In this document: piece after piece, positions 48,853 through 55,118 of the stretch
How the letters are laid out: the number at the start of each line of letters is the position of its first letter
How positions within the stretch are numbered: the stretch's first letter is position 1
Virus record (IMG/VR): IMGVR_UViG_3300027747_000967
Location: 55,999 to 119,998 of that record
Length of the DNA: 64,000 nucleotides
Direction: 5' to 3' (one strand)
DNA from: a virus
The notes under the pieces: model-generated
The model's input: the letters and a program-made list of their open reading frames with translations, nothing else
Databases searched by the model: none
Told to the model about the DNA's origin: nothing
Made by a program: the position numbers and the translations under genes

Positions 48853-50565
48853 TCAAGCATTCTGAACAATAGTCTGGAAGTCTACGCCAGTTCTTACAGC
48901 AACAAAATTCAACTGAATAAAGTTAACAGAACGAGCAGGCTGAATGTAAATATCACCAACAAATTGATTAGAATCAACAACTTGTTGTGGATTATTTGTA
49001 CCATCACAAACAACACGGAAATTATAGATACCACGGCGTGCCTGAACTTGTCTCAAGAAAGGTGTAACAAGAGCAATAAATTGATTTCTTGTTGTCACAT
49101 CATTAAATTCAAATAAAGAAAATTTAGATGCAGCTGCAATTGACTTTTCTAAAGTTAAGAATAATCTGCGAACATTAATACGGTCAAAGGCTGATGGTTG
49201 ACTTAACAATGTCTTATCGCCAAATAATACGGTACCTTGTCCTGGGAATGTTACAACAGGATTAACACCTTGGCCATAAAGGACATCACGATAAGTTTTA
49301 TTTGGATTCCATGCCAATTTAACGACATTTCTTAAATTACCACGATTGTAACCAGCTGGTGAATACCATGGGTCACGAACGGCATCGGTATACGCACATA
49401 GACCTGCTATGTCACCATTTAAAGGTATCCAACGATATACATTATTAAATTTATCAAACATATATTTCCAACCAGAATCAGCAACAGCGTAAGATGTTGA
49501 ACGAGCTAGTTGATTCAACCAAGTTGTAATATTAGCACTTTCATTACCTGGTTGATTAACAACAGAGGATGAAGGCGGTGAAACAAACGCTAAACAATCT
49601 TGACGTTGATTTGCAATATTATCAATAATATACTGTTGAGTTGCAACAGAAGCATCGCCAGAAATAACCAAATTAATATTTGTTTCGTCTGCGTTAGTAA
49701 AATAACTATATGCAGTTTGTGTATTTGCGTCTAAAATATTAGAATCAGCACCACCACCTAAAGTAATTGTCTGTACGCTTGTTAAATTAGCAAAATTTAT
49801 ATTTGTTGCATTTAATCCCCAAGTTGTGGATGTGTTTGCATAATTTGGTGGATCCATAGCGTAAATATATTTTGAATTTCTGAAAATATAATTTTTGTAA
49901 TAATTTGAGTTTCCTAAAGAATCATCAACATCCGCTCCTTTAGATAAAAACGGAAACACTTCTAAAATAGTATTTTTTGCGCCTGTAAATAAACCACCAG
50001 TATCCACAACTACAACGTGAACTTGGTCGTATAAAGCACCAGCACCAGCTGCTTGAATAGAAGTATTAGGAGCAACAGGAATTCTTGTAGCAAGACCTAC
50101 ACCATTTACATTCCATGTATTTGAGTATGTATTTGCATCAACTATTGAAACTGTTAATGAATTACCTAAAGCGCCAGGATAACGAGCTATAAAAGGACCA
50201 GCAATGTTTGCATTAGTTGTGGTATTTAAATAACTATATTCAAACGTATCTTCATTTGCAATTGCAATAGAAGCATTAGCGTTAGCGGAAGAATTTTTAT
50301 GATTAGGACCAATTGGTCTAACGATTGTTAAATTATTACCATATGCTAAGAAAGATGCAGCAGTAAAAAAAGAAACTGCTGTATTTGTATCTGGACTAAA
50401 AAAAGTACTTACCATTTGTGTTTCATTGGTAATTAAAACTCTTTTATTTGCTGGACCCCATCTAAAAGCTCCTGCAAAAGCACCTGCTGTTGTCAGTACG
50501 GCCGGAACTACAGTCGTTAAATCAACTTCCGATACTGAAACACCTGGAGAGATTGAATATGCCAT
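48853..50565 (-). CDS. 18: gp18 tail sheath protein
   Basis: A 570-residue sheath protein (T4 659). It starts with SPGVSVSEVDLTTVVPAV and ends with PARSVNFIQLNFVAVRTGVDF, both conserved handle regions. A late-box variant CATAAATA (50624-50631) is ahead. Confidence 0.96.
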   Translation of the reverse strand: MAYSISPGVSVSEVDLTTVVPAVLTTAGAFAGAFRWGPANKRVLITNETQMVSTFFSPDTNTAVSFFTAASFLAYGNNLTIVRPIGPNHKNSSANANASIAIANEDTFEYSYLNTTTNANIAGPFIARYPGALGNSLTVSIVDANTYSNTWNVNGVGLATRIPVAPNTSIQAAGAGALYDQVHVVVVDTGGLFTGAKNTILEVFPFLSKGADVDDSLGNSNYYKNYIFRNSKYIYAMDPPNYANTSTTWGLNATNINFANLTSVQTITLGGGADSNILDANTQTAYSYFTNADETNINLVISGDASVATQQYIIDNIANQRQDCLAFVSPPSSSVVNQPGNESANITTWLNQLARSTSYAVADSGWKYMFDKFNNVYRWIPLNGDIAGLCAYTDAVRDPWYSPAGYNRGNLRNVVKLAWNPNKTYRDVLYGQGVNPVVTFPGQGTVLFGDKTLLSQPSAFDRINVRRLFLTLEKSIAAASKFSLFEFNDVTTRNQFIALVTPFLRQVQARRGIYNFRVVCDGTNNPQQVVDSNQFVGDIYIQPARSVNFIQLNFVAVRTGVDFQTIVQNA

Positions 50566-50623
50566 TTGTGTTCTCCTTAAATTATTATGTTATGAATGTT
50601 TGGCAACTAGATTACTATGAATA

Positions 50624-50631
50624 TATTTATG
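50624..50631 (-). promoter_or_regulatory. Late-promoter variant CATAAATA ahead of gp18
   Basis: CATAAATA on the minus strand, 58 bases before gp18. One base from the T4 late octamer, similar to the NATAAATA form reported for cyanophages. Confidence 0.4.
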
Positions 50632-50650
50632 AAAGCGGTTATTTAGAGTT

Positions 50651-52441
50651 TTATCTTTTCATTTCTCTAAAATAATTAGCATAAACTTCACCACTACCTG
50701 CTTTTTCCCATAAATCACCATCAATCAAGTCAAAAGGTACATCTAAACCATTATCTATGACTGGTGCAGGCAATACTTCTTCAAATTCCTGATTCATATT
50801 TTCTAATTGAATCTGCTTACGAATATCGTGATTGACAATTTTTTTGAAATAATCTTGTGATGTTACCCATGAAAACATGACCAAACTCATCACCAAATCA
50901 TCATTGGCATCAGATTCGGCAGAGAAAGAATTTTTCTGTGAAACAAAAGTAGTTAATTCTGAATAGGTATCAAAGTCATTTACAAGTAATTTGTTACCTT
51001 CAATCAAAGTTTTTAAATTGGCACAACCAATTCGTTTGACTTGAGGTGACATTTTGAGACCCATTTGTGTGCCTCTTTGAAAACCTTCTGATAATTTTTG
51101 TGGTTTTTTATTACCCGTATACACTTTCCAAAGATTTTCATACTCAAAGTCTTGGTGTAAAATGTCAGCAACTTGTGGATTGTTATTAATCTCAACGAGA
51201 ATATATGCGTCATTATAATACTTTGCCGCATTATATACATGAGTTGGTAATAACATAGGTGACACAGTAGAACTTTTGTATCTTGCTACCTGTTTATAAG
51301 GAGTAGTGGAAATATTAATCACATTAAAAGCAGAACAGTCTAGATTACGACCTTCTGAAACGTCTACGGTAATACAATATAAATTGTCTTTTGTGGGCTC
51401 ATCTTCAATTTCTTTGATTGGATGTTCAAATATCATTAACTCATCATGTTCAGCAATAGCATCCACATAACTTATTTCTTGTAATTTTTTACCAGATATT
51501 AAAGTATTTGAAGAACCTAAGAACGTGGTATTAAATTCTTGGTCAAACTGCCTTTCTGAAGTATTACGAATTGTTTCTTCTTTCCAAGCCTCATCACGAC
51601 CAGGAACTTGCGACCAATGAATTTCAAATGGTACATAATTGTTCTTTTTATTCAGTGCGTCTTGCCAAATCTTGTAGAAAAGATTCATACCGTTTGGTGT
51701 AGATACAATTAAAATCTTTGTTTTTGTACCAGCAGTAATCACAGGATAAACAGAAGTAAAGAATTCGTAGGCAATATTTGAAGGCACGAAAGCAAATTCG
51801 TCTAAGAACACAATGTTAAAAGAACCTGAACGAGCCGCTGATGAAGATGTTGAGTCTGCTATAATAACCGATTTATTTTCTAATTCAATACGACCTTTGT
51901 TCCATTCCACAACACCTTGTTGTAGCCACATAGGTAAATTTTCATAGGCCAACTGAAGTTTTTGTAGAATTTTACGAGCAGTATCACCACGATTGGCAAG
52001 AATAGCAATCGTCTGTGCGTCTTGGAATAATATAGTCCATAAAAGATATGCAACTGCTGTGGTTGTATTATGTGATAATATATTACCTGTATAAAATCTA
52101 TGGTCATCAGAATTTATAGTTAAATCAAACATATGAGAATATTCTTCTGTTTGAATTACTTTTGTAATTAATTGTGGACCTGATTTAGTCATGATAAACG
52201 ATTTATTTGTAATTAAATCTTTAGCAAAAATTTCATTTAAACTCTCATCAAAGAGAATATGAGTATCAGCACAAATTAAATATGAACCATCTTCCGTTTC
52301 AATATACCATTCTTGATATTCAACGGTTTTATGAATTTGAGTTACAGGTACCCAACCAGAATCGGATTCAATTTCCCATTCATCATCTAAATCAATTGAA
52401 TCTACAAATTTTCTTTCTATTGTGTCAGAAAGTTTATACAT
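50651..52441 (-). CDS. 17: Split-intein C-half fused to gp17 large terminase C-part
   Basis: A 596-residue protein. Residues 1-125 are an intein C-half: ICADTHILF near 57-65 is block B (TxxH), and the end HRFYTGNILSHN is blocks F/G, with Thr126 as the next extein residue. From 126 it is terminase: TTTAVAYLLW completes Walker A, VFLDEFAFVP is Walker B, VSTPNG the coupling motif, and nuclease acidic residues lie in CITVDVSEG, YILVEINNN and DDLVMSLVM. Splicing to the 53327-53713 product would give a 558-residue gp17 (T4: 610). Because block B is on this half, the break is near the N-end, as in the AceL-TerL type. The start overlaps the endonuclease gene. Confidence 0.93.
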   Translation of the reverse strand: MYKLSDTIERKFVDSIDLDDEWEIESDSGWVPVTQIHKTVEYQEWYIETEDGSYLICADTHILFDESLNEIFAKDLITNKSFIMTKSGPQLITKVIQTEEYSHMFDLTINSDDHRFYTGNILSHNTTTAVAYLLWTILFQDAQTIAILANRGDTARKILQKLQLAYENLPMWLQQGVVEWNKGRIELENKSVIIADSTSSSAARSGSFNIVFLDEFAFVPSNIAYEFFTSVYPVITAGTKTKILIVSTPNGMNLFYKIWQDALNKKNNYVPFEIHWSQVPGRDEAWKEETIRNTSERQFDQEFNTTFLGSSNTLISGKKLQEISYVDAIAEHDELMIFEHPIKEIEDEPTKDNLYCITVDVSEGRNLDCSAFNVINISTTPYKQVARYKSSTVSPMLLPTHVYNAAKYYNDAYILVEINNNPQVADILHQDFEYENLWKVYTGNKKPQKLSEGFQRGTQMGLKMSPQVKRIGCANLKTLIEGNKLLVNDFDTYSELTTFVSQKNSFSAESDANDDLVMSLVMFSWVTSQDYFKKIVNHDIRKQIQLENMNQEFEEVLPAPVIDNGLDVPFDLIDGDLWEKAGSGEVYANYFREMKR

Positions 52442-53373
52442 TTTTGTATTGTACCTTGCTTGTCGTTTTTATAATCATTTTCTTTTATTCTTAATAATTT
52501 ATAACCATTATTATTTAAATCAATTTCTCTATTTTTATCTTTTTCAATTATAAAAGTATAGTTTTTATTTTTAACACTATGCCAATATTCACCATCAAAT
52601 TCAATAACTTTTTTGGTTGAAACATTAATAAAATCAGGTTTTATTGACCTGTTTGACAATAATAAAGTATATTCGTAATTTTTACCAGAATCATCTTTTT
52701 GTTTATTTTTATTTAATTCAGCAAAATAAATATTATCTAAAGAAGGTAAATTATCACAAATATTCCAAAATAATTCTTGTGATATTTTACTAAAATTAGA
52801 TTTAGGAAAAGATTTCAACCATTTTTCTTGTCTTTTATTCCATCTTTTTGTACCTTCTTCAACGCCATATTTTTTTATACATTTTTCTAAAGAAAAAGTT
52901 GATTGCCTTTCTGATAATAATTTTTTGGCTTCTACTTCATTACCATTTGTTTTTTCTAACCAATATTCTAATTTTGTATTATCTTTATTTAATATTTTTT
53001 TATTTTGTTTGGCTTTTTTCTTTGTTTCTTCAATATGATTTATTCCTTTAATGAACTTATCGGAAAAAGGTGAATATTTACCGCCATGTTGAAAAGCCGG
53101 ATTATTTTCTCCTTTTAACCTATCAATTGATTTTTGTGATTTAATTGTTGTAACATTATGTTTATTTTTATAATCATTTACAGACATATTATGTTTGTTG
53201 ATTATGTGTGTTGCTAATTCTGAACTTTTAAAACCACACTCTTTGCACACAATATAATCATACCCTTCAATCAATCCTTCATATTTTGCGTTTCTAATAG
53301 CTTGATGTTGTGCTAGTATTTTATCTTTATTTTTTTGGTAATAACTTTGATTTTTTTGCAGCTTGTTGTTCAT
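52417..53373 (-). CDS. Homing endonuclease between the gp17 intein halves
   Basis: A 318-residue protein. Two Cys (CKEC near residue 43) with HIINKH form a zinc-finger-like element. The C-terminal third (IKPDFINVSTKKVIEFDGEYWH, then KNREIDLNNNGYKLLRIKENDY) has the core of the Vsr-like/EDxHD endonucleases with EFDGEYWH. A GTAGGAG site lies 7 bases before the ATG. Overlaps: 47 bases with the N-half gene, 25 bases with the C-half gene. The same arrangement (split intein halves with a free-standing endonuclease between) was reported for fractured genes in ocean metagenomes. Confidence 0.85.
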   Translation of the reverse strand: MNNKLQKNQSYYQKNKDKILAQHQAIRNAKYEGLIEGYDYIVCKECGFKSSELATHIINKHNMSVNDYKNKHNVTTIKSQKSIDRLKGENNPAFQHGGKYSPFSDKFIKGINHIEETKKKAKQNKKILNKDNTKLEYWLEKTNGNEVEAKKLLSERQSTFSLEKCIKKYGVEEGTKRWNKRQEKWLKSFPKSNFSKISQELFWNICDNLPSLDNIYFAELNKNKQKDDSGKNYEYTLLLSNRSIKPDFINVSTKKVIEFDGEYWHSVKNKNYTFIIEKDKNREIDLNNNGYKLLRIKENDYKNDKQGTIQKCINFLTQ

Positions 53374-53713
53374 AAAATTCTCCTACTGTAGTTTCAATAA
53401 TTTCTCCGGTTTTTTTGTTTTTTAACCGTATAGGAGTATTTAGTTGAAAACATTTTCCAACTTGCCTTGGACATTTTGTAATGACGAAACGATTATCATG
53501 AAACGTCTTAATCATGTCCTTTTGAAAATCATACATATCAAAAGGTACCACACCATCATCTAGTGTAATAATTTTGATATATTTGGTAAAATAGATAGGG
53601 TCTTTAGAACACTTAATGTATTCTTCAAGTTCTTCTTGTGTATAGTTAAGTGAAACCCCAACTCGTTTTAGTAGTGGGTTGTCACGGTAGCTTTGCTTAT
53701 TATTTGTTGCCAT
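53327..53713 (-). CDS. 17: gp17 large terminase N-part fused to split-intein N-half
   Basis: A 128-residue protein. Residues 1-87 are the terminase N-part, ending ITKCPRQVGK in the middle of Walker A. Cys88 starts the intein: CFQLNTPIRLKNKKTGEIIE, then TTVGEFYEQQ (block A), and the frame stops at 128, leaving a 41-residue N-half without block B. Without splicing the ATPase loop GK/T is broken. It overlaps gp16 upstream and the endonuclease downstream. Confidence 0.92.
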   Translation of the reverse strand: MATNNKQSYRDNPLLKRVGVSLNYTQEELEEYIKCSKDPIYFTKYIKIITLDDGVVPFDMYDFQKDMIKTFHDNRFVITKCPRQVGKCFQLNTPIRLKNKKTGEIIETTVGEFYEQQAAKKSKLLPKK

Positions 53714-54119
53714 TGTCTTTTAGAAATTTAGCCAGTTCATTGGTACTACCTACAAAAATTGCTTTATCTATATTGGTATTGTTGACTTCTTTTTTCTTGT
53801 CCATATCACGCATTGTTTTTTGAATACTAAGAAGTTCTTTATTGGCATCTACCATATTTTTGAGTAGGCCGCTATAAACTTCAAATGCACGAGGATGTTG
53901 ACCTGCTTTTGCTATCTCTAAAATTTCGTGCATTGCTTCTTGGCCTTGGTCAATAATGCCTTGAAGATTTTCTCTTGACTGTTGATAAGCGTCACCTAAA
54001 TCTTCTTCAATATTAGGTGCGTTATAAAGTGGTGTAGTTTTAGTCACAACAGGTAAATCTTTAGTCTCTTTTGCAGGAACATCAAAGATTTTTTCCATGT
54101 TTTTATCAAAATTATTCAT
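53700..54119 (-). CDS. 16: gp16 small terminase
   Basis: A 139-residue protein with a central helical hairpin (YQQSRENLQGIIDQGQEAMHEIL...HPRAFEVYSGLLKNM), as in T4 gp16 (164). It binds the end of viral DNA and regulates gp17, with which it overlaps by 14 bases. Confidence 0.9.
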   Translation of the reverse strand: MNNFDKNMEKIFDVPAKETKDLPVVTKTTPLYNAPNIEEDLGDAYQQSRENLQGIIDQGQEAMHEILEIAKAGQHPRAFEVYSGLLKNMVDANKELLSIQKTMRDMDKKKEVNNTNIDKAIFVGSTNELAKFLKDNGNK

Positions 54120-54128
54120 TTTATATTA

Positions 54129-55118
54129 TTATCTATATTCTTGAATTGTAGTTGTATAGGTATAATTACTGTTAGCGTTTGCTGTGGTTGGATTTGGAAC
54201 TACAGTAATTTTAGCATATTGATGTGAATTTACATAATATGAAGTAAATGTATAATTTGCATTTGTTTTTGAACCAATAATTGGTTGATTTGAAACAAAA
54301 TTACCAGATATATCTGTTAGTACTAATTCTTTTTTTGTTCCAATTGTTTTAAACTCTAATACTTTTCCTGTTGCTGTTGATGTATTTAGTGAGTATCCTT
54401 GGTAAACAATTTCACCGGTTTGATAAGTTCCAATACCTGTATTTGCCACATTAAAGATAACAGAATTTTCGCCTTGAATATTATTCAGAACATTTGTAAT
54501 AGAAGTTTTAATAAGACCCGTTGACGATGTTGGTCCGTAAATAAATCCTTTGGCTGTAAAATTTAATGTCCAAATAATGATTCTTGTATCAATACTTCTG
54601 TCACCTTCTGAAGTAATTTCTTGTGAAACATCGTTTAATAATATAGGAACTTCTTTAATGATACCCATTTCAGGTATTAAATTTAATTTTAATGTGTAAT
54701 CTGGTGTAAAATAAGCCAATATATGTTCAATGATTTGTGAAGCATCTTCAATGTTTCTTACATAAAGATATAATGAAAAATTAAAATTATAAGGCACAGG
54801 ATTGTATTGAGATTTTACTCCTGTCGGTGTTTGTGCAAAGTTTTGTATATTAGTATTTTGCTTTCTTGATGTGTCATAAGAAATACCAGTCATTTCATAA
54901 GCCATTGTTGGCAAAGTAATTCTAGTTTTCTTATCTAAATTTGGGTCATCAGATAAACGGTCAACATAATTTTCTTTACTTGCAAACCCAATAGGAACAA
55001 TAAATCTTTCTTGTTCTGAATCATCTTCATTATAACGAACCAATGTAATATTATCAAAGATGCTTCCAAAACCAACAATCATTTTTCGTATAATACGATT
55101 ATAGAAAACATTGGCCAT
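54129..55118 (-). CDS. 15: gp15 tail-completion / sheath terminator
   Basis: A 329-residue protein starting MANVFYNRIIRKMIVGFGSIFDNI. RYNEDDSEQERFIVPIGFASKENY and TLPTMAYEMTGISYD are typical of the gp15 family. It caps the tail for joining to the neck. Longer at the C-terminus than T4 gp15 (272). Confidence 0.93.
   Translation of the reverse strand: MANVFYNRIIRKMIVGFGSIFDNITLVRYNEDDSEQERFIVPIGFASKENYVDRLSDDPNLDKKTRITLPTMAYEMTGISYDTSRKQNTNIQNFAQTPTGVKSQYNPVPYNFNFSLYLYVRNIEDASQIIEHILAYFTPDYTLKLNLIPEMGIIKEVPILLNDVSQEITSEGDRSIDTRIIIWTLNFTAKGFIYGPTSSTGLIKTSITNVLNNIQGENSVIFNVANTGIGTYQTGEIVYQGYSLNTSTATGKVLEFKTIGTKKELVLTDISGNFVSNQPIIGSKTNANYTFTSYYVNSHQYAKITVVPNPTTANANSNYTYTTTIQEYR

What the first reader, a model, noticed from the sequence alone, without database searches (positions are those of the whole stretch)
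50651..53713. Atypically split TerL intein: the phage ATPase is broken inside its Walker A and needs trans-splicing
The terminase N-part stops being terminase at CPRQVGK, and Cys88 begins a 41-residue intein N-half with block A (CFQLNTPI...VGEFYE) but no block B. The 50651-52441 gene begins with a 125-residue C-half that carries block B (ADTH) and ends HRFYTGNILSHN before Thr, then resumes TTTAVAYLLW. Joined, the exteins read CPRQVGK-TTTAV, a normal Walker A. Known TerL split inteins with very short N-halves (AceL-TerL, VidaL) have this design. Here the N-half is 41 residues, so the exact split may be new. Packaging would depend on protein splicing.
Basis: partly seen in the sequence, partly recalled or inferred. 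Interest (0 to 1): 0.92.

Follow-up and report, generated by a model that had tools for sequence, protein, structure and literature searches.

The report
Split-intein phage motor gene with endonuclease
A freshwater T4-like phage carries its DNA-packaging motor gene in two pieces, cut inside the ATP-binding loop by a two-part self-splicing protein element with a mobile endonuclease gene wedged between the halves; this is a known kind of element, but here the endonuclease reading frame overlaps both halves and the same element family also invades a second phage ATPase.

Summary
On the minus strand the large terminase is broken at GK|T of Walker A: 87 residues of terminase plus a 41-residue IntN, then a 125-residue IntC plus 471 residues of terminase. 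Joining the exteins gives 558 residues, 99.6% identical without gaps to an uninterrupted 558-residue terminase in a near relative.

Over 100 related terminases have an exact empty site. The split recurs in independent contigs and in a cultured phage, Delftia phage PhiW-14. Ackermannviridae carry a contiguous homologous intein at the same junction. All three ORFs are under purifying selection, and the modelled contiguous relative folds as an intein closest to VidaL.

It is a 'fractured gene' with an atypical (S2) split, so a known kind. IntN length is not the novelty: only 28 residues are conserved. What looks new is family-wide: the endonuclease starts out of frame inside IntN, a sister clade keeps a contiguous intein open over the whole out-of-frame endonuclease, and the same family sits in Walker A of gp46. 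Splicing itself is inferred, not shown.

The parts
53453..53713 (-). terL (T4 gp17-like) N-extein, 87 aa, ends CPRQVGK
   Evidence: (phrog_5989, E 1.8e-21)
53327..53452 (-). IntN, 41 aa plus stop; conserved core of 28 aa (CFQLNTPIRLKNKKTGEIIETTVGEFYE) at 53369-53452, poorly conserved lysine-rich tail after it
53371..53383 (-). GGAGAATTTTATG: Shine-Dalgarno-like motif and start codon of the endonuclease, embedded in IntN codons G-E-F-Y-E
   Evidence: same place in 32 of 34 intact cassettes (offset 79 or 82 nt), GGAG in 26 of 34
52417..53373 (-). free-standing homing endonuclease, 318 aa, +1 frame relative to the intein; MucR/Ros-like zinc finger plus C-terminal Vsr-like PD-(D/E)XK nuclease (IEFDGEYWH)
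   Evidence: (3r3p I-Bth0305I, E 0.0018)
53327..53373 (-). 47-nt overlap of IntN and endonuclease reading frames
52417..52441 (-). 25-nt overlap of endonuclease C-terminus (KCINFLTQ) and IntC start (MYKLSDTIE)
   Evidence: exactly 25 nt in the other intact cassettes
52067..52441 (-). IntC, 125 aa, block B ICADTH, block F/G DDHRFYTGNILSHN
   Evidence: invariant H61, D106, S123, H124, N125
50651..52066 (-). terL C-extein, 471 aa plus stop, begins TTTAVAYLLW (+1 Thr = Walker A Thr)
   Evidence: (Terminase_6N, Terminase_6C)
52067..53452 (-). whole inserted cassette, 1386 nt (divisible by three)

Best explanation
A naturally split, atypical (S2-split) class 1 intein interrupts the terminase large subunit of a T4-like phage at GK|T of Walker A, with a free-standing Vsr-like homing endonuclease gene between the halves. 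Two precursors are made: TerL(1-87)-IntN and IntC-TerL(88-558). The short IntN docks into IntC, Cys1, the C-terminal His-Asn and the +1 Thr carry out trans-splicing, and the Walker A loop CPRQVGK-TTT is restored, so packaging ATPase is only made after splicing (inferred). The endonuclease is translated from a start codon inside IntN, out of frame; IntC starts inside the last codons of the endonuclease (reading-frame anatomy shown, translation inferred). The endonuclease presumably cuts intein-less terL of co-infecting phages at the conserved Walker A codons, and repair copies the whole 1386-nt cassette (inferred). Shown here: anatomy, empty sites, recurrence, purifying selection, fold of a contiguous relative, nuclease family. 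Inferred: splicing, cutting, homing.
For: Extein join 558 aa, 99.6% identical and gapless to an intact TerL; over 100 exact empty sites. Same split with or without the endonuclease in about 50 non-redundant loci. Cultured PhiW-14 has terL split at the same place, with only the IntC-bearing part annotated as gp17. Contiguous homologous inteins at the same GK|T junction in Ackermannviridae; 313 phage records hold an IntC homologue. Catalytic His/Asn invariant. dN/dS about 0.13-0.40 IntN, 0.07-0.15 IntC, 0.19-0.39 endonuclease for window pairs. AlphaFold model of the contiguous relative L201, pLDDT 86; low-confidence loop at 47-62 after helix 23-45; best PDB fold match VidaL 6vgv, E 3.6e-9. Endonuclease: I-Bth0305I and Vsr by profile and fold. 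Sole TerL in the record. No Rfam intron.
Against: No splicing or cleavage data. Block B has Ala (A-D-T-H) where Thr or Ser is usual, although this Ala is nearly invariant in the family, contiguous members included. Pfam Intein_splicing is below its cut-off (16.5 against 35.8 bits). dS is often near saturation, so the ratios are rough. The record is 120 kb and may be incomplete, so a second terL elsewhere cannot be excluded. The window IntN-IntC pair itself could not be modelled (tool rule against joined sequences).
Confidence: 0.88

Rival explanations
1. The two intein halves are joined at translation: ribosomes shift frame in the IntN/endonuclease and endonuclease/IntC overlaps, so a contiguous precursor splices in cis.
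For: IntN and IntC are in one frame with the endonuclease at +1, the insert length is a multiple of three in 33 of 34 intact cassettes, and overlaps are conserved. A sister clade really is contiguous.
Against: The intein frame has 56 stops across the window's endonuclease gene, as many as codon-shuffled controls (56.7), so there is no selection to keep it open. The 5' overlap varies from 17 to 71 nt in 33 of the 34 intact cassettes and is absent in one. Cassettes without an intact endonuclease (L003, L046, L242, L212) have lengths that are not multiples of three and still keep both halves.
Confidence: 0.05
2. Decayed intein: terL is a pseudogene, and packaging uses another terminase or the phage is defective.
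For: Gene in two pieces; Pfam intein score low.
Against: Purifying selection on both intein halves, both halves conserved over about 50 sequences, the isolate PhiW-14 has the same split, and there is no other TerL in the record.
Confidence: 0.03
3. Assembly chimera or mis-join.
For: Metagenome contig.
Against: Identical structure in contigs of two other metagenomes, diverged homologues, and an isolate genome.
Confidence: 0.01
4. RNA-level removal (group I intron carrying the endonuclease).
For: Endonucleases of this type also ride in introns (PDB names the I-Bth0305I chain 'mobile intron protein').
Against: No Rfam match at E up to 1 in 50000-54500; both ends code for conserved intein protein sequence with dN/dS below 0.41 in window pairs; exteins are cut between codons at GK|T.
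Confidence: 0.02

Closest known systems
Fractured genes: split inteins with a free-standing homing endonuclease between the halves (Dassa et al. 2009, NAR 37:2560; cited in PMC6892783 and PMC13014065; paper not held, content from memory)
   Same: Host gene in two ORFs, each ending in half an intein, Vsr-like endonuclease ORF between them.
   Different: Split is at the atypical S2 position; the endonuclease ORF overlaps both halves out of frame. Whether overlaps were described there could not be checked.
AceL-TerL / GOS-TerL / Cat (atypically split TerL inteins)
   Same: TerL host, S2 split after the first helix, short IntN (25-37 aa) and a large IntC (PMC13014065, PMC11766414).
   Different: Another insertion site (QEF|C, not Walker A) and a distant sequence (E 0.04-0.08 here against E 3e-19 for a site-c intein); +1 residue Thr, not Cys.
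VidaL intein (PDB 6vgv)
   Same: Best solved fold match of the contiguous relative; atypical N-terminal split.
   Different: S1 split with 16-aa IntN (PMC13014065); 21% identity to the modelled relative.
Contiguous TerL inteins of Ackermannviridae (PhaxI, Dickeya Ds16CZ, Vibrio SD25)
   Same: Same GK|T site, about 41-50% identity to IntC.
   Different: One chain, no endonuclease.
I-Bth0305I / Vsr nuclease family
   Same: Catalytic domain by profile and fold.
   Different: Here between split intein halves, with an N-terminal zinc finger.
ShiLan out-of-frame HNH insertions (PMC11855218)
   Same: Endonuclease encoded out of frame inside an open host frame, as in relatives L197 and L240.
   Different: ShiLan has no splicing domain; HNH, not Vsr-like.

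Membership tests
Class 1 intein | Nucleophile (Cys) at position 1 with block A | tested here: met
   C88 starts IntN; Cys at position 1 in all classified family members at this site
Class 1 intein | Block B T-x-x-H | tested here: inconclusive
   A-D-T-H: His invariant, Thr replaced by a family-wide Ala
Class 1 intein | C-terminal His-Asn and +1 Cys/Ser/Thr | tested here: met
   SHN|T, invariant SHN
Class 1 intein | HINT fold | tested here: met
   Contiguous relative L201 modelled, 58 PDB hits at E <= 0.001, the 50 listed being inteins or intein-like BIL domains; window pair itself not modelled
Class 1 intein | Splicing activity | not testable with these tools
   Needs bench work
Naturally split intein, atypical S2 | Two separately encoded halves; split after the first helix, short IntN | tested here: met
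   Split falls in the disordered loop after helix 23-45 of the model; IntN 41 aa, conserved core 28; published natural range 15-37 aa
Fractured gene (Dassa type) | Free-standing endonuclease gene between intein halves | tested here: met
   318-aa ORF, Vsr-like
AceL-TerL / GOS-TerL allele | Same insertion site and close sequence | tested here: not met
   Different site (Walker A against QEF|C) and E 0.04-0.08 to CatC
VidaL-type S1 split | Split after second strand, IntN about 16 aa | tested here: not met
   IntN includes the start of helix 1
Vsr-like homing endonuclease (I-Bth0305I type) | Vsr-like catalytic core | tested here: met
   3r3p E 0.0018 by profile; 3r3p and 1vsr top fold hits, Foldseek E 6e-3 and 3e-2
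Vsr-like homing endonuclease (I-Bth0305I type) | Cuts the intein-less site | not testable with these tools
   Only polymorphic empty sites shown

The most novel reading that the evidence does not exclude
An undescribed lineage of phage P-loop inteins in which the homing endonuclease is not a domain of the intein but a separate gene written out of frame across it: its ribosome site and start codon lie inside IntN, IntC starts inside its last codons, and in a sister clade the intein frame stays open across the whole endonuclease so the same DNA encodes a cis-splicing intein and a separate nuclease. The split form of the window is then the state in which the intein frame is broken by stops. The lineage has moved between Walker A loops of two unrelated ATPases (gp17 terminase, gp46 SbcC-like).
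Probability: 0.55. Interest if true: 0.78.

Novelty: new variant of a known kind. Interest (0 to 1): 0.62.

Why it matters
It gives a graded natural series at one junction: empty, contiguous mini-intein, contiguous intein with an out-of-frame endonuclease, split with endonuclease, split without it. That makes the question of how split inteins arise and why they persist directly testable. It is also a source of new short-IntN split inteins with a +1 Thr, and it points to an essential phage motor whose ATP-binding loop exists only after protein splicing. Several relatives appear to need two split inteins to make one terminase.

Tried and rejected
First structural alignment (A2) put IntC N-termini on IntN columns, so it was replaced by A4. 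Rfam search for an intron: nothing. Second TerL, intein or endonuclease copies in the own record: none. The tree of IntN+IntC is poorly resolved deep down; contiguous relatives with the endonuclease do not fall outside the split ones with support, so the direction contiguous-to-split is not settled. The local cluster of synonymous changes just upstream of the insertion relative to L011 (5 of 18 nt, P 0.004, chosen after seeing it) hints at co-conversion but is weak. Dassa 2009 and Bachmann & Mootz 2015 could not be opened. First dN/dS script failed part way and was redone.

Full report
What is there. On the minus strand, a gp16-like small terminase gene is followed by an ORF of 128 aa (53713-53327), an ORF of 318 aa (53373-52417) and an ORF of 596 aa (52441-50651), then tail sheath and tube genes (the gene names outside terL are by position and general knowledge). 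The first ORF is terminase for 87 aa and then CFQLNTPIRLKNKKTGEIIETTVGEFYEQQAAKKSKLLPKK. The last is 125 aa of intein C-part ending in SHN, then 471 aa of terminase with both ATPase and nuclease domains. Joining the exteins gives 558 aa that align end to end, gapless and at 99.6% identity, with the uninterrupted 558-aa terminase of locus L011, whose terL DNA is 95% identical. Over 100 related terL genes have a zero-base gap at that junction.

Not an artefact. The same sequence is in contigs of two other metagenomes; the same split, at 70-78% identity, is in L003, L005 and L009; and the isolate genome of Delftia phage PhiW-14 has terL split at the same place, the upstream part being unannotated. 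The window's record holds one terminase match, one match to the IntC profile and one to the endonuclease profile.

What the middle gene is. It has a MucR/Ros-like zinc finger and a C-terminal nuclease with IEFDGEYWH. Its profile finds I-Bth0305I (3r3p, E 0.0018) and, weakly, Vsr; the model's best fold matches are the same two. This is the nuclease type I remember from the fractured-gene paper of Dassa et al. 2009, which could not be opened here; PMC6892783 describes a similar arrangement in a DNA polymerase gene.

Intein. The C-terminal His-Asn and the block B His are invariant in the ten sequences aligned. A contiguous relative (L201) modelled from an alignment of 74 rows folds with pLDDT 86; residues 1-45 form two strands and a helix, the low-confidence loop at 47-62 marks where the others are split, and the nearest solved structure is VidaL, followed by gp41-1. 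That split is the S2 position of AceL-TerL and GOS-TerL in the nomenclature of PMC13014065. dN/dS is below one for IntN, IntC and the endonuclease in every pair where it could be computed.

Family. A profile search of viral contigs returned more than 500 stretches, of which 80 were kept. Together with cultured phages they fall into five states at one junction: empty; contiguous mini-intein (Ackermannviridae, L201, L208); contiguous intein with the endonuclease out of frame inside it (L197, L199, L202, L204, L226, L240, L241); split with endonuclease; split without it (L003, L212, L242, L245, L247, PhiW-14). A quite different contiguous Ala1 intein whose central sequence I read as LAGLIDADG-type sits at the same junction in L092-L094. 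The host is not always terminase: many are SbcC-like gp46 proteins, interrupted at their own GK|T or GK|S.

Overlap. In 34 non-redundant cassettes with an intact endonuclease, its start lies 79 or 82 nt into the intein in 32, and GGAG precedes it in 26; the 25-nt overlap with IntC was part of the definition of 'intact', and the long ORFs failing it look frame-shifted near their 3' end. The window's start is GGAGAATTTTATG, read as G-E-F-Y-E by IntN. In L003, which lost the endonuclease, the Tyr codon is TAC and the motif GGAC, so both signals are gone at little or no cost to IntN; other endonuclease-less members still keep the start, so this is one example. The window's intein frame has 56 stops across the endonuclease, as in shuffled controls; L197 and L240, whose endonucleases are 60% identical, have none against 14-19 expected (0 of 20,000 shuffles). 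So the window is truly split, and the sister clade is under selection to stay contiguous.

Mechanism. Shown: anatomy, exact empty sites, recurrence, selection, nuclease family. Inferred: trans-splicing, dependence of packaging on it, cutting of empty alleles and homing. The near-identical empty relative L011 makes recent gain or loss likely.

Comparison. Member of naturally split, atypically split inteins and of fractured genes by every feature that could be tested, apart from the block B Thr, which is Ala throughout this family. Not the AceL/GOS-TerL allele (other site, distant sequence). Out-of-frame endonucleases inside open host frames have one precedent that I found, the ShiLan insertions (PMC11855218), which carry no splicing domain. 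I found no description of an intein of this build in the held papers, but most subscription literature and two key papers were not readable, so novelty is provisional.

Noticed in passing
L197:679-1944, L202, L204, L226, L240:3110-4372, L241: Contiguous TerL intein whose frame stays open over a complete Vsr-like endonuclease gene in the +1 frame (0 stops in about 279 codons, 14-19 expected).
   Followed up: partly
L185, L192, L194, L195, L198, L206, L210, L212, L214, L247, L248: The same split intein family interrupts Walker A of gp46 (SbcC-like) in other phages, so the element moves between unrelated ATPases.
   Followed up: partly
L010:1613-4630, L009, L181, L183, L180: terL genes with two or more interrupted sites (Walker A plus a Walker B-near or QEF|C site); one terminase may be assembled from three or more polypeptides.
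   Followed up: partly
L166:2476-4755 (Delftia phage PhiW-14): Cultured phage with an unrecognised split terL; GenBank annotates only the IntC-bearing part as gp17.
   Followed up: yes
L092, L093, L094 (960-nt insert): Unrelated contiguous Ala1 intein with a LAGLIDADG-like centre at exactly the same GK|T junction.
   Followed up: no
L170:1170-4215 (Pseudomonas phage Paride): uvsX broken at GESG|SGKS with a 17-aa IntN, free endonuclease ORF and IntC: same design in a RecA-like gene.
   Followed up: no
L163 (Vibrio phage Va1) and L172 (Escherichia phage kaaroe): Split terL inteins in which the endonuclease is fused in frame to IntC (Va1) or to IntN (kaaroe).
   Followed up: no
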